Shown in pieces: positions 4,336 to 48,486 of a stretch of DNA of 64,000 bases; positions within the stretch are counted from its first letter, which is position 1, and each line of letters opens with the position of its first letter. The notes beneath the pieces were generated by a model, which worked only from the letters and a program-made list of their open reading frames with translations, searched no databases and was not told the origin of the DNA. The position numbers and the translations under genes were made by a program. This stretch comes from Chryseobacterium viscerum (GTDB lineage Bacteria > Bacteroidota > Bacteroidia > Flavobacteriales > Weeksellaceae). The DNA is taken from the NCBI RefSeq assembly GCF_025949665.1, contig NZ_JAPDFT010000001.1, positions 310,001-374,000 of the forward strand. The letters run 5' to 3'.

Positions 4336-5040
4336 TTACTGTACAATGCCTGATTCGTAGTCTTTCTTCAGAATAAATCCCATACCGGCTTTGGTGTGGA
4401 TAAGTTTGGTCTCAAAATCTTTATCAATCTTTTTTCGGAGATAGTTAATGTATACATCAATAAAATTGGTTCCCGTATCAAAGTGGGTTTCCCATACTTT
4501 CTCTGCAATTTCACTTCGGGAAAGGACTCTTTCTGAATTTTCCAGCATAAATTTTAAAAGATTAAATTCTTTCGGAGTCAGTTTTATTGGAGTATGATCC
4601 CTGCTCACCGTTTTCTGCTCCAGATTCATTTCAATTCCCTCATATTGAAGAACAGAAACTTTTTGCAGCCTCTGTTGTGAAAAACGTTTCAGAAGTACTT
4701 TGATCCTTGCTGTCAGTTCCCGCATTTCAAAAGGTTTGGTCAGATAATCATCAGCTCCGGCATCAAATCCTTCCAGTTTGTCATCAGTGGTTCCCAGTGC
4801 AGTCAGCATAATGACAGGAAGATTAGGTTTTAATGCTTTGATTTCATTACAAAATTCAAGGCCGTTTTTTTTAGGAAGGACAATATCTGTGACGATCAGA
4901 TCAAAATTGGTCTGCAAAGCCAGTTTCAGACCTGTGATTCCGTCATAAGCCACGGTTACCTCAAATTTAGCTTCCTGAAATCCTTTTGCAATCAGTTTGG
5001 AAAGCCTGTCATCGTCTTCAACTAATAAAATATGTGGCAT
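4336..5040 (-). CDS. OmpR-family response regulator
   Basis: The 234-residue protein has a receiver domain with acidic pocket EDD (8-10), phospho-acceptor Asp52 (VTDIVLP), the conserved Thr/Ser and Lys102 region (LTKPF), and a C-terminal winged-helix DNA-binding domain (KLTPKEFNLLKFML through YINYLRKKID). It is cytosolic and is phosphorylated by the kinase encoded just downstream. First gene of the two-gene operon. Targets are unknown; the divergent neighbour is a YiiX-like hydrolase gene starting 101 bp away, which is a candidate. Confidence 0.95.
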   Translation of the reverse strand: MPHILLVEDDDRLSKLIAKGFQEAKFEVTVAYDGITGLKLALQTNFDLIVTDIVLPKKNGLEFCNEIKALKPNLPVIMLTALGTTDDKLEGFDAGADDYLTKPFEMRELTARIKVLLKRFSQQRLQKVSVLQYEGIEMNLEQKTVSRDHTPIKLTPKEFNLLKFMLENSERVLSRSEIAEKVWETHFDTGTNFIDVYINYLRKKIDKDFETKLIHTKAGMGFILKKDYESGIVQ

Positions 5041-5141
5041 AAGAATCTTGGAAATGTTTGGGTTGGTGTGAAGAATAGATCAATATTCCCACAAATGTAA
5101 TGAATTCTATTTTGTAATTTTGATGCCGAAAGTAGAATAGA

Positions 5142-5816
5142 ATGTCTGAATTTAAAATATTTTTTAGCAAAAGAATCAAAGAAATTATTGCTGTAGGAAT
5201 TTTATCCTTTTTAATGATTTTACTGGTTCAGTGTAGTCACGTTTATCAAAGTAATGTAGAACTCAAAAATGGAGATCTTCTTTTTGTTACTGCCAAAGAA
5301 TCCGGGCTTTCCGGAGCGATCAATAATGTCACTCAAAAACAAAAAACAGCTTCATTTGATCATATAGGAATTCTGGAAAAAGAATGTCACCATATGTTTG
5401 TACTGCATGCTGCTCCCAAAGGTGGTTCTCAAAAGCAGGATTTAAAAGACTTTATCAAAGACCAGAAAGAAGAAGGACAGGAAATCATTGTATATCGTCT
5501 GAAGCCGGAATATCAGAAAACAATTTCCGGAGCTATTGAAAAAGCCAATTCTATGCTTGGAAAACCTTACAATTTCAATTATATTCTGGATGAAAATTCA
5601 TATTACTGTTCAGATTTTGTGGAAAGGGCTTTTCGGGATGATCATATTTTCAAACTGGAGCCAATGACATTTATTGATCCCAAAACAGGTAAAACAAATA
5701 CGTTTTGGGAAGAATTTTATACCAAAAAAAATATCAAAGTCCCTGAAGGTGAGCCTGGTTGCAACCCCAACGGACTTGCCGGTTCTGAGAAACTGGAAAG
5801 AATAAATAAACTTTAA
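5142..5816 (+). CDS. YiiX/YebB-like N1pC/P60 papain-fold cysteine hydrolase, membrane anchored
   Basis: The 224-residue protein opens with a hydrophobic segment (about 15-32) ending in VQCS, which may be a lipobox or a signal anchor. The remainder matches the YiiX-like clan of permuted NlpC/P60 enzymes: LKNGDLLFV, a His in FDHIGIL that would be the catalytic His, and SYYCSDFVERAF that would hold the catalytic Cys. Members cleave peptide or amide bonds in envelope substrates, but the exact reaction is unproven. It is divergently placed from the OmpR-type regulator. A T-rich weak terminator follows. Confidence 0.8.
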   Translation: MSEFKIFFSKRIKEIIAVGILSFLMILLVQCSHVYQSNVELKNGDLLFVTAKESGLSGAINNVTQKQKTASFDHIGILEKECHHMFVLHAAPKGGSQKQDLKDFIKDQKEEGQEIIVYRLKPEYQKTISGAIEKANSMLGKPYNFNYILDENSYYCSDFVERAFRDDHIFKLEPMTFIDPKTGKTNTFWEEFYTKKNIKVPEGEPGCNPNGLAGSEKLERINKL

Positions 5817-42320: not shown

Positions 42321-42992
42321 GTGCAGCATGAGGCTGAAGTTCTTCATCAGAAAAAATTAGTACTGGAAAACATCAAAGCCCAGGAAGAAGAAAGAAAGAG
42401 AATTGCAGTAATGATTCATGATGACATTGGAAACCGGCTCAATATTCTTTCTTTATGGTTGAATAACCTTGATACCCAGGGTGATGAGTTGATAAAAAAA
42501 AATATCTATGGCCAGATGTCTTCTCTGATTGATGCAGCCAGAAGTATTTCCCATTCATTGTACCCTGTAAATCTGGAATCGGTAGGGCTGGTTTTATACG
42601 TTGAGGAATTAATAGCCAACCTTTCCCATAAAATTAATATATCCCTGCAAGTGATGCCGGGATATGAGAAGAAAGATCTTTTCGCAGAAGTGCAGCTGTA
42701 CAGGATTATTCAGGAATTTACTACCAATGTAATCAAGCATTCTGAAGCAGAAGACCTTTGGATCTATATTAAAGATTATCCTGAAAATACGGCTGTTATT
42801 ATTTCTGATAACGGACAGGGTTTTGAATATGAAGAAGTGAAAAAAGGAATGGGAATAAAAAATATAGAATCCCGTATCAAATCAATGAACGCAACACACA
42901 AATGGAAAAAAACTTTTTCGAATAAAGGAAGTCGTTTAATTATAAAAATTCCAAAATATCATGAGTTCCCAAATCAAACTAGCACTGATTGA
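42321..42992 (+). CDS. sensor histidine kinase, HisKA_3 type (start uncertain, longer upstream)
   Basis: The kinase shows a coiled coil, the HisKA_3 box RKRIAVMIHDDIGNRL with the phospho-acceptor His, and an HATPase domain with VIISDNGQGFEYEEV and KGMGIKNIESRI. From GTG 42321 it has 223 residues. The same frame is open upstream and encodes a clear transmembrane helix (INLLILIIVTITVIVSFILL), so the true protein probably starts earlier, possibly at a rare ATT at 42198 overlapping the end of the membrane protein gene; no ATG, GTG or TTG is available there. The response regulator gene overlaps its 3' end by 32 bp. Confidence 0.85.
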   Translation: MQHEAEVLHQKKLVLENIKAQEEERKRIAVMIHDDIGNRLNILSLWLNNLDTQGDELIKKNIYGQMSSLIDAARSISHSLYPVNLESVGLVLYVEELIANLSHKINISLQVMPGYEKKDLFAEVQLYRIIQEFTTNVIKHSEAEDLWIYIKDYPENTAVIISDNGQGFEYEEVKKGMGIKNIESRIKSMNATHKWKKTFSNKGSRLIIKIPKYHEFPNQTSTD

Positions 42993-43638
42993 TGATGAAC
43001 AGCTGATCCTCGAAGGGGTAAAAATGTTGCTGTCCAATGAAAAAAATATATCGGTATGCCTTACCGCGGATAATGGCCCCGATTTTATAGAAGACCTCGG
43101 AAAACTTTCAGAAAATGAATTTCCTGATATTGCCCTTGTAGATGTTCAGATGAAACCTATGAACGGTTTTGAACTGGTAGAAATTCTGAAGGAAAAATAT
43201 CCCGATCTTAAAATTATTATCCTTTCATCCCATTATAAAACTTCTATTTTAGGATATATGGTCAAGCTCGGAGTATCGGCTTTTCTTCCCAAAAATTCAA
43301 ATAAAAAAACATTTATTGATGCCATTACGATGGTTGATAAAAATGGAGTTTTCTTTACTGCGGAAGACCATCAGATGCTGTTTACCTATATGAATGGTTC
43401 TGCCAAGAAAAATTCTCTTTTTGAAACAGAAGATGAACTGTCTGAAAGAGAAAAAGACGTGGTAAAACTGATCTGCCAGGAGTTTACCAATAACGAAATA
43501 GGAGAAAAACTCTTTATCAGTCCCAGAACCGTAGAAAGCCACAGGCAGCGTATTCTGGAGAAGATAGGAGCCAAAAATACTGTGGGAATAGTGATTTATG
43601 CTATTATTAACAATATTTATTCCCTTGAAAAAATGTAA
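42961..43638 (+). CDS. NarL/LuxR-family response regulator
   Basis: The 225-residue protein has a receiver domain (acidic pair DD 11-12, phospho-acceptor Asp61 in LVDVQM, and a Lys in LPKNSNKK) and a LuxR-type helix-turn-helix (LSEREKDVVKLICQEFTNNEIGEKLFISPRTVESHRQRI). It overlaps the histidine kinase gene by 32 bp, indicating translational coupling. It is cytosolic. Targets are unknown. Confidence 0.94.
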   Translation: MSSQIKLALIDDEQLILEGVKMLLSNEKNISVCLTADNGPDFIEDLGKLSENEFPDIALVDVQMKPMNGFELVEILKEKYPDLKIIILSSHYKTSILGYMVKLGVSAFLPKNSNKKTFIDAITMVDKNGVFFTAEDHQMLFTYMNGSAKKNSLFETEDELSEREKDVVKLICQEFTNNEIGEKLFISPRTVESHRQRILEKIGAKNTVGIVIYAIINNIYSLEKM

Positions 43639-43640
43639 TC

Positions 43641-43668
43641 TGATTCCGTAGAAATACGGATTTTTTTA
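43641..43668 (+). terminator. terminator of the NarL two-component operon
   Basis: TCCGTA/TACGGA hairpin just after the stop, followed by seven T residues. Confidence 0.65.
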
Positions 43669-43788: not shown

Positions 43789-45141
43789 ATGAATGGTAGT
43801 AGAGTGATTTCCGTCGGGATTTTCTTTGACGGTACAGGAAACAATGGGGTCAATATTCTTTCACCGGATAAACCGCTGAACAACAATGAAAGTTATTATG
43901 GTACCTTCACCAATATCTATAAATTATACAGTTTATTTATTGGAGATGAAAAAATATATATCGAAGGAATTGGAACCGTAACGGGCAGTGAAGATAATAG
44001 TTTTGCTATGGCAACATGTGCAAATCCCCCCTATGGTAACGGATATTCTTCCGATGATAAACTTCAGAAAGCAGGGAATTTTGTAGAGCAGATTATTCAT
44101 GATCAGACAAAAGAATACCATTTTTATATCTATGGATTCGGGAGAGGAGGAATGCTGGCAAGAACTTTCTGCAATCAGCTTTTAACTCATTATTCTCCGG
44201 GAAATTTCAGAATAAAATTCTTAGGAGCTTTTGATACAGTAGAATCTAAACCTTTTAATACTTATAATCTGAATATTCCTGCTCAGGTAGAGAATGCTTT
44301 GCATATCTGTGCAGTCAATGAGAGCCGTTTTTTCTTTCCGCTTACCGGATTTTTTGAGGATTCAAAAATAATGGAGGATCAGAAATCGGAGAATACATCT
44401 TCCGTTTGGAAAGAAATCTTTGTGCCGGGTGATCATGCTGATATCGGAGGAGGATATCTTGAAGGGCCGCAGTCTGTTTATATTTCTACAGACTTCATTC
44501 ATATTGATGATCTGCATCACTATGTTTCAGATATCAGGAATGAAAAAACCAATGCTGAAGGCAATAAAATCTGGGATGCTCTGCTTTCCGGATATGAAAT
44601 TGAGACCGCCAATGGCCTTTCACAGGCATATGTATGTCGGGACAAAGTATATAATGATCTTTCAAAAGTTTATGGAAAACTGATGCTGGAAGAAACCAAT
44701 GCTAAAGTATCCGTTTTCAGTACAGATAATGATGCTTATTTTGGGACAGATTATAATAAACATCCTTTTCTCAGTCGTTTTTATATCAAAATAAAAGAAT
44801 ATATAAGAGATCTTTCTGTGGGTAAAAAGCCAATTTATGATTTTTGGAAATTTGCAGATTACACCCATATTTCAGCAAATTTCGGGCTATATAGCAACAG
44901 CTTTCTGAAAAGATCCCAACGGGAAATTAATATTGAATTGATTAATAACGGATTAAATGTTTCCAGCAGTACTTCTGTGGACGAGACCAGCCGGACAAGG
45001 CTTTCCGTTGAACTTCATCTGCCGGAAGACAGCTTTGTTGCAGATTTTCTTTACGGAACCAGTGTTCCCAATAATGATGTATGGGATCGTTCCATTTTAA
45101 AAGCACCGGCAGCCATTACATTAAATGAAATTAAGAATTAG
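43789..45141 (+). CDS. Tle1/DUF2235-like alpha/beta-hydrolase fold protein lacking the nucleophile Ser
   Basis: The 450-residue protein has the DUF2235/Tle1 layout: IFFDGTGNN at 11-19, KFLGAFDTVES (Asp), HICAVNESRFFFP and PGDHADIGGGYLEG (His). Tle1 proteins are lipases delivered by type VI secretion. The nucleophile elbow, normally GFSRGA, is GFGRGG here: residue 118 is Gly (codon GGG at 44140-44142) in YIYGFGRGGMLART. The protein therefore looks catalytically dead unless another residue acts. No signal peptide is present. The next gene, 253 bp downstream, is unknown. Confidence 0.8.
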   Translation: MNGSRVISVGIFFDGTGNNGVNILSPDKPLNNNESYYGTFTNIYKLYSLFIGDEKIYIEGIGTVTGSEDNSFAMATCANPPYGNGYSSDDKLQKAGNFVEQIIHDQTKEYHFYIYGFGRGGMLARTFCNQLLTHYSPGNFRIKFLGAFDTVESKPFNTYNLNIPAQVENALHICAVNESRFFFPLTGFFEDSKIMEDQKSENTSSVWKEIFVPGDHADIGGGYLEGPQSVYISTDFIHIDDLHHYVSDIRNEKTNAEGNKIWDALLSGYEIETANGLSQAYVCRDKVYNDLSKVYGKLMLEETNAKVSVFSTDNDAYFGTDYNKHPFLSRFYIKIKEYIRDLSVGKKPIYDFWKFADYTHISANFGLYSNSFLKRSQREINIELINNGLNVSSSTSVDETSRTRLSVELHLPEDSFVADFLYGTSVPNNDVWDRSILKAPAAITLNEIKN

Positions 45142-45394
45142 TGCCAACGCTTCTCAGTTTTAAATTTAGGTTAGGGGACATCATTGCAGGTGTTCCCTTT
45201 TAGTTATAACAGATTGAATTCCATTGAGTATAAGTACTGAATTTTATATTTGGTATATTATACTGTAGTTTTTGGAATTTAATTCTCGTTATTTTGAATT
45301 GTTCATTGCAAGAAGCTTCAACATCATAATATGAACAAAGGCGTTTTCTGAAAAGCCTAATATCAAAAGAGTAAGAACACCAAAGATTAAAACA

Positions 45395-46132
45395 ATGGAA
45401 AAGACACTCATTCAAAAATCGGGGACTACATTATTCACAATTAATTTTGATTTTACCTCAAGTGATCAGCAAGAGATTCTAAGAGAACTGCAGGCAAATA
45501 ATTATAAGCTGGTAGGATATAAAGGTGCATCGGGACCCAATCAGGTTTCCTCAGGAGTGCCGGCGTGGTTTTCAATTTATTATTTTGAAATGTTTGGATA
45601 TGAAGAAATTTATTGTGAACCAAAATATAAAGTATATGTTTACAATAAAGGAGTTATAGATATCAATACAACCATTCAAATGCATGCCATATCGGATGAA
45701 GTTCCATTAGGTACAGCCGTGACTTACCACAAGGATGGTTCTTTTTCAACCACTTCAGGAGCCCCGGCAGAAGCCATTACTGTAAAAAATGAAAGAGAGG
45801 CGGGTACGTCGGATATTACGATAGGATTAGCTGCATTTGTAGAAGGAAGATTCCAGCCTTTCTGTGCTTTTACATGTGCTCCGCAAGGAGAGGTGGTCAT
45901 GGAACCTAATGAAAATATAGTTCTGTTTGCTGACCAGACAGATGCTACCCCAGGATCTGTTACTGGTTATACAACAGGATCTGGATGTAACTTTGCGTTC
46001 AGCGACCAGAATGTAAAATATGATTTGGAGATGATTCACGGAACTTATGGTATTGGAAATGTACCAGGAAAAGCACCAGTTAAATCTATACCTCGGGGGA
46101 CCTCATTGGCAGAACTTCTCAATATCAAATAA
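45395..46132 (+). CDS. hypothetical protein (possible Tle1-cluster partner)
   Basis: The 245-residue cytosolic protein is not recognised. It is beta-rich, with a repeated two-strand pattern (LFTINFDFTSSDQQEILREL, KYKVYVYNKGVIDINTTIQ) and Gly/Thr-rich loops, reminiscent of a lectin- or fimbrial-type sandwich, but this is only impression. There is no signal peptide, so export would need a specialised route. It is followed after 40 bp by an 82-residue gene on the same strand. Confidence 0.55.
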   Translation: MEKTLIQKSGTTLFTINFDFTSSDQQEILRELQANNYKLVGYKGASGPNQVSSGVPAWFSIYYFEMFGYEEIYCEPKYKVYVYNKGVIDINTTIQMHAISDEVPLGTAVTYHKDGSFSTTSGAPAEAITVKNEREAGTSDITIGLAAFVEGRFQPFCAFTCAPQGEVVMEPNENIVLFADQTDATPGSVTGYTTGSGCNFAFSDQNVKYDLEMIHGTYGIGNVPGKAPVKSIPRGTSLAELLNIK

Positions 46133-46172
46133 AAAAACGGGAAATTTTTAAAATTAACTAAAAAATAATAAT

Positions 46173-46421
46173 ATGACCGTTTCAGAATGGCTGGATAAAG
46201 CCAAAAGACTTTTAGATATTTGTAATTACCAGATCAGTATTAGAAATGGGAAGAAAGCTTTAACAGTGAGTCAATCTGATACTTTGCACGAGTTACAAGA
46301 TGAAATCGGGTATCGCCATGGAATCGCACCGGTTAGCTATAACGAGGCTTCAGACATTCTTATTGAAATGATCGGAATGGTAAAAGCAGGATGGAAAACA
46401 CCACCACTTATCCCGGGATAA
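46173..46421 (+). CDS. small hypothetical protein
   Basis: The 82-residue protein is mostly helical (SEWLDKAKRLLDICNYQ, YNEASDILIEMIGMVKAGW) and ends in TPPLIPG. No family is recognised. It is the third gene of the run that starts with the Tle1-like protein, with a 40-bp gap from the second. A terminator follows, so the second and third genes form one transcript. Confidence 0.55.
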   Translation: MTVSEWLDKAKRLLDICNYQISIRNGKKALTVSQSDTLHELQDEIGYRHGIAPVSYNEASDILIEMIGMVKAGWKTPPLIPG

Positions 46422-46557: not shown

Positions 46558-48486
46558 ATGCTTTCGGTTCAAAGTTTAGGATTACATCATTCAGGAAATT
46601 ATTTATTTCAAAATGTCAATTTTACCATCAAAAAAGATGATAAAGTTGGTCTCGTAGGAAAAAATGGAGCGGGGAAATCCACTTTATTGAAAATGCTGTC
46701 CGGAGAAATTAATTTCTACGAAGGAGAGGTTGTGACGGAAGGAAGTGTTACCATTGGTTTCCTGAAGCAGGACCTAGATTTTGTAAAAGGAAGAACCGTT
46801 TGGGCTGAAACGATGCAGGCTTTTGAGCAGATCAATGCCTGGAAAAATGAGCTTGAAGAAGTGAATCACCAGATGACCGTAAGAACAGATTACGAAAGTG
46901 ATTCTTATACAGATCTGATTAATAAAATGACCGAACTGAATGACCTTTTGATGAACCATGATGCCTACAATCTTGAAGGTGACATGGAAAAAGTGTTGTT
47001 TGGTTTAGGATTTAAAGCAGATGATTTCCAAAAAATCACTGATGAATTTTCCGGAGGATGGAGAATGAGAATCGAATTGGCAAAATTACTTCTTCAGAAG
47101 AATGATATTATGCTTCTCGATGAGCCTACCAACCACCTGGATATGGAATCTATCATCTGGCTGGAGAACTTCCTGAGAGATTATCCGGGAGCCATTGTTC
47201 TTGTAAGTCACGATAAACAGTTCATGACGGCTGTTTGTAACCGTACTTTCGATATCAACAACAAGAAGGTTGACGATTATAAAGCTAACTATTCCAAGTA
47301 TCTTGTCATGAGAGAAGATCGTCGTGAAAAACTGATTCAGGCTAAAAAGAATCAGGATGCGGAGATCAAACAGATGGAAGACAACATTAATAAGTTCCGT
47401 GCAAGTGCTACAAAAGCATCTTTCGCGCAGTCACTTATTAAGAAATTAGATAAAATAGAACGTATCGAAGTTGATAATGAAGACGTTTCAAAATTCAATA
47501 TCCGTTTCGTACAGTCTATGGTTCCGGGAAAAATCATCTTTGAAGCAAATCATTTAGGAAAAGCTTACGGAAAAAAGCAGATTTTTGATGATGTAGACTT
47601 TATCGTTCAGAGAGGAGACAGAATTGCTCTTTTAGGACAAAACGGACAAGGAAAAACAACGTTGGCTAAAATTTTAGCAGGAGATATTAAAGATTATTCC
47701 GGAACCTGGAATCTTGGACATAATGTAAACATTGGATACTTCGCACAGAATCAGGAAGAGGTTTTAACACCTAATAAAACAGTTCTGGAAGAAGCAGAAG
47801 ATGCAGCAACGGAAGAGACAAGACCTAGAGTAAGAGATTTATTAGGATCTTTCCTTTTCCAGGGAGACGCTGTTACTAAGAAAACAAAAGTACTTTCCGG
47901 AGGAGAGAGAAACCGTCTGGCACTTTGTAAACTGTTGCTTCGTCCTTTCAACACCCTGATCATGGATGAGCCTACCAACCACTTGGACATCCAGTCTAAG
48001 GAGATTATCAAGCTTGCGCTGCAGAACTTTGAAGGAACTTTAATTGTAATTTCGCACGACAGGGAATTCCTTCAGGGACTTTGTGATAAGATCTATGAGT
48101 TCCGTGATGGGAAAATGAAAGAATTCCTTGGAGATATCAATGAATATCTTGAATACAGACAAAAGGAAACGATCAGAGAGATTTCTGCAGAAAAAGCCAA
48201 ACTTCATCAGGAAGTAAAGGTAGAACCTAAGAAAGTAGAAGAAAAACCTGTTGTAAGCAGCAGCCCATCTTCGAATATCGTTAGTAAAGAACAGAAAAAT
48301 ATTCAGAATAAAATCAAGAAAGTAGAAGAGAGAATTTCCGAACTTGAAACAAAAATAGAGGAAATGGAAGCTTCTTTTGCCAAAGAAAATCCTTCAGATG
48401 AAACCTTAGAAAAATACAATAAAACTAAGGAAGACCTGGATACTGCTTTGCAGGAGTGGGAATATCTTGGTACCCAACTTGATTAA
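46558..48486 (+). CDS. ABC-F family ATPase
   Basis: The 642-residue protein has two ABC ATPase domains and no membrane segment: Walker A GLVGKNGAGKST (about 32-43) and LLGQNGQGKTT, signatures FSGGWRMR and LSGGERNR, Walker B IMLLDEPTNHLD and TLIMDEPTNHLD. Between them is the Lys-rich linker (AKKNQDAEIKQMEDNINKF) and the C-terminus is a coiled coil (about 570-642). ABC-F proteins act on the ribosome to resolve stalled translation. The long coiled-coil C-terminus resembles Uup rather than the antibiotic-resistance branch. Confidence 0.95.
   Translation: MLSVQSLGLHHSGNYLFQNVNFTIKKDDKVGLVGKNGAGKSTLLKMLSGEINFYEGEVVTEGSVTIGFLKQDLDFVKGRTVWAETMQAFEQINAWKNELEEVNHQMTVRTDYESDSYTDLINKMTELNDLLMNHDAYNLEGDMEKVLFGLGFKADDFQKITDEFSGGWRMRIELAKLLLQKNDIMLLDEPTNHLDMESIIWLENFLRDYPGAIVLVSHDKQFMTAVCNRTFDINNKKVDDYKANYSKYLVMREDRREKLIQAKKNQDAEIKQMEDNINKFRASATKASFAQSLIKKLDKIERIEVDNEDVSKFNIRFVQSMVPGKIIFEANHLGKAYGKKQIFDDVDFIVQRGDRIALLGQNGQGKTTLAKILAGDIKDYSGTWNLGHNVNIGYFAQNQEEVLTPNKTVLEEAEDAATEETRPRVRDLLGSFLFQGDAVTKKTKVLSGGERNRLALCKLLLRPFNTLIMDEPTNHLDIQSKEIIKLALQNFEGTLIVISHDREFLQGLCDKIYEFRDGKMKEFLGDINEYLEYRQKETIREISAEKAKLHQEVKVEPKKVEEKPVVSSSPSSNIVSKEQKNIQNKIKKVEERISELETKIEEMEASFAKENPSDETLEKYNKTKEDLDTALQEWEYLGTQLD

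What the first reader, a model, noticed from the sequence alone, without database searches (positions are those of the whole stretch)
43789..46421. Tle1-like protein without its nucleophile serine, followed by two unknown genes
The elbow is GFGRGG instead of GFSRGA (Gly118, codon GGG), while DGTGNN, FDTVES and HADIGGGY are kept. The scaffold is conserved but the Ser is gone, which points to a binding or decoy role, or to a new chemistry. The two small downstream genes (245 and 82 residues) are not recognised and have no signal peptide, so they could be partners, immunity or delivery proteins. No type VI structural gene is visible nearby.
Basis: partly seen in the sequence, partly recalled or inferred. 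Interest (0 to 1): 0.66.

Follow-up and report, generated by a model that had tools for sequence, protein, structure and literature searches.

The report
Tle1-like lipase lacking its serine
Many Chryseobacterium species carry, at one fixed place in the chromosome, a relative of a bacterial lipase toxin whose essential catalytic serine has become glycine at least twice and is kept that way by selection, so it is probably a dead enzyme kept for another, still unknown, job.

Summary
The 450-aa ORF (43789-45141) is a Tle1-like (PF09994) alpha/beta-hydrolase. Gly118 sits where solved Tle1 proteins have the nucleophile serine; the Asp149 and His216 partners are kept.

The ortholog occurs in 135 of 173 Chryseobacterium genomes and in none of 32 other genera of the family. 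All 130 intact copies sit behind the same response regulator. Residue 118 is Gly in 58, Ser in 71 and Asn in 1. The 55 copies around the window form one clade; three others gained Gly independently (AU test p 2.6e-5). Within the clade, codon 118 shows 17 synonymous changes and no replacement. dN/dS equals that of the serine form (0.126 against 0.133).

The downstream 245- and 82-aa genes are not obligate partners. They are absent from most G-type loci and appear to form a separate transcription unit. Yet all 22 known 245-aa genes lie at this locus. No T6SS or immunity gene is nearby, although the genome has a T6SS and a bona fide Tle1 effector module elsewhere.

Best reading: a domesticated pseudo-lipase that binds a ligand or partner without hydrolysis. 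New chemistry using the retained His-Asp pair is not excluded. Both structure predictions failed (mean pLDDT 42 and 46).

The parts
43789..45141 (+). Tle1-like alpha/beta-hydrolase (PF09994), 450 aa, nucleophile-less (G-type)
   Evidence: ORF; Pfam; orthologs in 135 of 173 genus genomes
44140..44142 (+). codon 118 (GGG, Gly) in place of the nucleophile Ser, elbow GFGRGG
   Evidence: alignment to 6sjl Ser197; state across 130 orthologs
44233..44235 (+). Asp149, aligned to triad Asp245 of 6sjl, invariant in 55/55 G-clade and 71/71 S-type
44434..44436 (+). His216, aligned to triad His310 of 6sjl, invariant in 55/55 G-clade and 71/71 S-type
44962..44964 (+). Ser392, fixed Pro->Ser difference of the large G clade; not shared by the second G lineage
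42961..43638 (+). LuxR-type response regulator, constant upstream neighbour (130/130 loci)
   Evidence: Pfam
43645..43660 (+). terminator-like hairpin between response regulator and Tle gene
   Evidence: pattern match only
45173..45198 (+). terminator-like hairpin after the Tle gene
   Evidence: pattern match only
45245..45252 (+). Bacteroidota -7 box-like TATATTTG upstream of the 245-aa gene
   Evidence: pattern match only
45395..46132 (+). accessory gene, 245 aa, unknown family, locus-specific but dispensable
46173..46421 (+). accessory gene, 82 aa, unknown family, 40 bases after the 245-aa gene
46558..48486 (+). ABC-F protein, downstream boundary of the variable stretch
   Evidence: Pfam

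Best explanation
The gene encodes a domesticated pseudo-lipase: a soluble Tle1-type alpha/beta-hydrolase at a fixed chromosomal place, unlinked from any T6SS delivery or immunity gene. Ser-to-Gly at the nucleophile elbow removes the acyl-enzyme step, so it cannot act as a phospholipase by the Tle1 mechanism. Fold, cleft and the Asp149/His216 pair are retained. Its selected function is one that the serine-bearing orthologs at the same locus can share without catalysis: binding a lipid- or ester-like ligand, or a protein partner, probably in the cytoplasm as scaffold or sensor. Shown: the loss, its sharing and recurrence, fixation of Gly, undiminished purifying selection, and absence of T6SS linkage. 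Inferred: non-catalytic binding, cytoplasmic location, nature of the ligand.
For: Gly118 in all 55 members of one clade; a second independent Ser-to-Gly in another clade (L146, L151, L154) and one Ser-to-Asn (L152). AU test rejects a single origin of Gly (lnL 201 worse, p 2.6e-5). At codon 118 within the clade: 17 third-base changes, 0 replacements. Median dN/dS 0.126 in the G clade, 0.133 in S-type. Of 91 positions invariant in all 71 S-type proteins, only 118 and 392 are fixed differently in the G clade; L146 and L152 depart from those 91 only at 118. No new Ser/Thr/Cys/Asp/Tyr is gained in common by the two Gly lineages. Gly and Asn both tolerate the strained elbow backbone (phi 60, psi -135 for the Tle3 nucleophile, PMC9860674), as expected once catalysis is not selected. 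Locus is single-copy with constant neighbours; most S-type loci also lack any adjacent gene that could be an immunity gene.
Against: Asp149 and His216 stay invariant in the G clade, which would also suit a remaining chemistry; but most S-invariant positions stay invariant too, so this is weak. No activity, structure or ligand data. AlphaFold models failed (mean pLDDT 42), so cleft and pocket were not inspected. That S- and G-forms share a function is inferred from shared locus and constraint only.
Confidence: 0.6

Rival explanations
1. New chemistry: the retained His-Asp pair acts as a general base on a bound substrate or water without a covalent step, as in cofactor-free alpha/beta-hydrolase dioxygenases, where the nucleophile is dispensable and naturally Ala in some members.
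For: Asp149 and His216 invariant in 55/55; Gly rather than any small residue is fixed, with 17 synonymous changes; precedent HOD/AqdC, PMC10548524.
Against: Most positions invariant in S-type are also kept in the G clade, so Asp/His retention is not special. The second Gly lineage erodes the DGTGNN motif. Ser-to-Asn in L152 fits structural tolerance better than chemistry.
Confidence: 0.17
2. Domesticated dead toxin acting in T6SS conflict: a decoy or antitoxin-like protein that binds immunity proteins, VgrG or incoming Tle1, or a catalytically dead T6SS cargo.
For: PF09994 membership; T6SSiii sheath TssC in 170 of 173 genus genomes including this one; most carriers hold other PF09994 copies.
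Against: No VgrG, Hcp, PAAR-like or immunity gene at the locus in contrast to the module at G000 C1:628-645 kb; the gene is present in G029, where no TssC was found; S-type form sits at the same locus without immunity.
Confidence: 0.13
3. The Tle-like protein and the 245/82-aa (sometimes 213- and 341-aa tail-collar-like) proteins form one functional cassette, for example a delivered complex.
For: All 22 genomes with the 245-aa gene have it at this locus, 21 directly behind a G-type Tle; L130 has 245-213-341-Tle(Ser)-82 in a tight row.
Against: 36 of 55 G-clade loci lack the 245-aa gene and 32 of 58 G-type loci have none of the cassette genes before ABC-F; separate terminator- and promoter-like signals; the stretch also hosts unrelated inserts.
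Confidence: 0.07
4. Decaying pseudogene or sequencing artefact.
For: Frameshifts in L025 and L026.
Against: L025 and L026 also break in neighbouring genes, so those frameshifts look like assembly errors; 58 intact Gly copies, dN/dS 0.126.
Confidence: 0.02

Closest known systems
Tle1 phospholipase effectors (EAEC Tle1, PDB 6sjl; P. aeruginosa Tle1, PDB 4o5p; PF09994, former DUF2235)
   Same: Homologous catalytic-domain core: DGTGNN, elbow, FDTV Asp, HxDxGGGY His
   Different: Nucleophile Ser is Gly; no C-terminal membrane-anchoring module by length (450 against 884 aa in 4o5p); no VgrG/PAAR/adaptor or immunity neighbour
Serine-bearing Tle1 paralog in the same genome (L169, 8265-9677)
   Same: PF09994, similar size (470 aa)
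   Different: GFSRGA intact and embedded in a T6SS module with TssD/Hcp, VgrG, DUF2931 lipoprotein and DUF4280; 23% identity over the catalytic core
Cofactor-free alpha/beta-hydrolase dioxygenases HOD and AqdC
   Same: His-Asp pair kept while the nucleophile is dispensable or Ala (PMC10548524)
   Different: Different family; no evidence here for oxygenase activity
Neuroligins and other cholinesterase-like adhesion proteins (own knowledge, not tested)
   Same: Hydrolase fold with catalytic Ser replaced by Gly, kept for binding
   Different: Eukaryotic, extracellular, different family

Membership tests
PF09994 Tle1-like catalytic domain | Profile score above curated cut-off | tested here: met
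   62.4 bits against 27
Tle1 T6SS phospholipase effectors | GxSxG nucleophile motif | tested here: not met
   GFGRGG in the window and in 53 of 130 orthologs, other Gly elbows in 5 more; GFSRG in 71
Tle1 T6SS phospholipase effectors | Asp and His of the triad | tested here: met
   Asp149 and His216 aligned with 6sjl Asp245 and His310, invariant
Tle1 T6SS phospholipase effectors | Genetic linkage to VgrG/Hcp/PAAR or adaptor | tested here: not met
   None from 29.9 to 59.2 kb; same regulator neighbour in all 130 loci and ABC-F in all 114 where the fetched stretch reached it
Tle1 T6SS phospholipase effectors | Adjacent lipoprotein immunity gene (for example DUF2931) | tested here: not met
   No Pfam match in neighbours; 60 of 71 S-type loci hold none of the tested cassette genes before ABC-F, most with gaps under 400 bases
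Tle1 T6SS phospholipase effectors | C-terminal membrane-anchoring domains as in P. aeruginosa Tle1 | tested here: inconclusive
   Length argues against; structure prediction too poor
Tle1 T6SS phospholipase effectors | Phospholipase A activity, toxicity, T6SS secretion | not testable with these tools
   Needs experiments
Pseudoenzymes | Loss of a residue essential for the family's chemistry, with gene maintained by selection | tested here: met
   catalytic loss itself inferred from S303A loss of function in Aeromonas Tle1 (PMC7245790) and the triad dependence of P. aeruginosa Tle1 (PMC13133936)

The most novel reading that the evidence does not exclude
A Tle1-type hydrolase has been converted, twice independently, into a non-hydrolytic catalyst that uses the conserved His-Asp pair and a Gly-widened elbow, giving an alpha/beta-hydrolase chemistry with no nucleophile from a toxin family.
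Probability: 0.14. Interest if true: 0.78.

Novelty: new variant of a known kind. Interest (0 to 1): 0.52.

Why it matters
It is a natural series of 130 orthologs at one locus, with the serine present in 71 and replaced in 59, all under similar constraint. Comparing the two forms would show directly which part of the function needs catalysis. It also warns that PF09994 hits are routinely called T6SS phospholipase effectors, while here a genus-restricted branch of the family lacks delivery and immunity linkage, and 45% of the copies read also lack the nucleophile.

Tried and rejected
AlphaFold2 of the Tle protein and of the 245-aa protein failed (mean pLDDT 41.6 and 45.5), so no fold search was run. 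Ser392 as replacement nucleophile: fixed in the large clade, but the second Gly lineage keeps Pro392, as it keeps the S-type residues at 47 and 82. 'No T6SS in the genome' from the VipB model was wrong: the Bacteroidota-type TssC model hits. Pseudogene reading rejected by dN/dS. Single origin of Gly rejected by AU test. On a tree of neighbouring genes residue 118 needs 5 changes rather than 3, because L130 and L116 are placed differently; the L130 stretch held here has only a fragment of the regulator. PDB search with the 245-aa profile found nothing; PADLOC found nothing. Paper searches found no described nucleophile-less Tle1, within an open-access library only.

Full report
WHAT IS THERE. 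The ORF at 43789-45141 encodes 450 aa with DGTGNN, YGFGRGGMLAR, FLGAFDTVES and PGDHADIGGGY. It scores 62.4 bits against PF09994, the Tle1-like catalytic domain. Profile alignment to the solved Tle1 proteins places Gly118 on Ser197, Asp149 on Asp245 and His216 on His310 of PDB 6sjl. That these three residues are the EAEC Tle1 triad is from my own knowledge of that protein; the open papers read here confirm a Ser-Asp-His triad for the family (PMC13133936; PMC9860674) and describe S303A as the inactive form of Aeromonas Tle1 (PMC7245790).

THE GLYCINE IS SHARED, FIXED AND RECURRENT. One scan of genome contigs gave 24 Chryseobacterium loci: 19 with GFGRGG and 5 with GFSRG. In the 173 genomes of the genus held, 135 have the ortholog, essentially one copy each, and none of the 32 other genera of the family does at E 1e-12. 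I read 130 intact copies: residue 118 is Gly in 58, Ser in 71, Asn in 1. On a tree made without columns 118 and 121 this needs three changes: one at the base of the 55-member clade that includes the window, one in the clade L146/L151/L154, and Asn in L152. A careful tree of 49 rows agrees, and forcing all Gly copies together is 201 log units worse (p 2.6e-5). L152 comes from a fragmented, 87%-complete genome, so the single Asn could be an error.

SELECTION. Within the large clade codon 118 uses all four Gly codons (GGA 30, GGG 18, GGT 4, GGC 3), which needs 17 third-base changes with no replacement. Pairwise dN/dS is 0.126 (438 pairs) against 0.133 for S-type pairs (203 pairs). Of 91 positions invariant in all 71 S-type proteins only two, 118 and 392, are fixed differently in the G clade; L146 and L152 depart from those 91 only at 118. 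S-type is defined by Ser118, so 118 is invariant there by construction; the other 90 positions are not conditioned in this way. Asp149 and His216 are invariant in both groups, which is suggestive but weak, since most S-invariant positions are.

NO REPLACEMENT NUCLEOPHILE IN SEQUENCE. The large clade gained Tyr47, Tyr82, Ser392 and (mostly) Ser406. The second Gly lineage has Phe, Gly, Pro and no Ser at these places. So no common new nucleophile accompanies the loss. Gly and Asn are both residues that accept the strained elbow backbone (phi 60, psi -135 reported for the Tle3 nucleophile, PMC9860674). This favours relief of strain after catalysis ceased to be selected over a swap of nucleophile. 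That step is inference.

LOCUS. In all 130 loci the same response regulator lies upstream, usually about 150 bases away. The ABC-F gene lies downstream in all 114 loci where the fetched stretch reached it; the others are mostly short fetches. Six of nine genomes without the gene show the regulator followed directly by ABC-F; in the other three ABC-F was not seen in the stretch fetched. The Tle gene is flanked by terminator-like hairpins at 43645-43660 and 45173-45198, and a TATATTTG -7-like box precedes the 245-aa gene. These are pattern matches only. Terminator-like sites are near chance level in that stretch (3 found, 2.1 expected).

DOWNSTREAM GENES. In the G clade 19 of 55 loci have the 245-aa gene and 17 have the 82-aa gene; 32 of 58 G-type loci have none of the cassette genes before ABC-F. 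So they are not obligate partners. But the association is one-sided: across 320 genomes of the family the 245-aa gene occurs in 22, always at this locus, 21 times directly behind a G-type Tle (two of these are the frameshifted copies). Some loci add a 213-aa protein and a 341-aa protein with a phage tail-collar-like end. One S-type locus, L130, has 245-213-341-Tle-82 in a tight row. Other loci hold unrelated inserts. I read this as an insertion-prone stretch with a lineage-specific cassette of unknown use.

T6SS CONTEXT. The genome has a Bacteroidota-type TssC, as do 170 of 173 in the genus. A bona fide Tle1 module lies at C1:628-645 kb with TssD, VgrG, DUF2931 lipoprotein, a GFSRGA Tle1 and DUF4280. 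DUF2931 proteins are described as putative Tle1 immunity proteins (PMC7245790). None of this is near the finding. Genome G029 has the S-type gene although TssC was not found there.

MECHANISM. Tle1 chemistry needs the serine for the acyl-enzyme, so G-type proteins should not be phospholipases by that route. Since Ser and Gly forms occupy the same place under equal constraint, the function most likely shared by them does not need the nucleophile: ligand or partner binding by the hydrolase cleft or surface. The main rival is chemistry by the His-Asp pair alone, for which alpha/beta-hydrolase dioxygenases give a precedent (PMC10548524).

VERDICT. Observation confirmed and strengthened; partner hypothesis weakened; a conserved pseudo-lipase branch restricted, as far as sampled, to one genus. 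New variant of a known kind.

Noticed in passing
L169:4537-16282 (G000 C1:628000-645000): A T6SS effector module in the same genome: TssD/Hcp, VgrG, DUF2931 lipoprotein, serine-bearing Tle1 (GFSRGA), LysM-like, DUF4280 (PAAR-like), an OmpA-domain 939-aa protein and small lipoproteins.
   Followed up: partly
L130 (G075): S-type Tle in a compact row RR-245-213-341-Tle-82-306 aa-ABC-F, the only S-type locus with the 245-aa gene; gene order differs from the G-type loci read.
   Followed up: partly
L013:9035-10060 and L065:6044-7069 (query orientation): 341-aa protein of the downstream cassette with a phage tail-collar-like C-terminus (PHROG 327, E 2.9e-7), without other phage genes recognised nearby.
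   Followed up: no
L151, L154: The second Gly lineage also erodes the otherwise invariant DGTGNN motif (T16A, N18S).
   Followed up: partly
L021:7702-8211, L023:7744-8262 and further S-type loci: A different unknown protein of 169-172 aa follows some S-type genes; no family match.
   Followed up: no
L149 (query orientation 4471-5712): A 413-aa protein with NUMOD4/NUMOD1 motifs inserted between Tle and ABC-F; antisense proteins that look like PLP-dependent decarboxylases (by eye) sit at the same place in L075, L077, L080, L114, L135.
   Followed up: no
G127, G165, G016, G070: 7 to 10 PF09994 matches in one Chryseobacterium genome, suggesting large Tle1-like repertoires.
   Followed up: no
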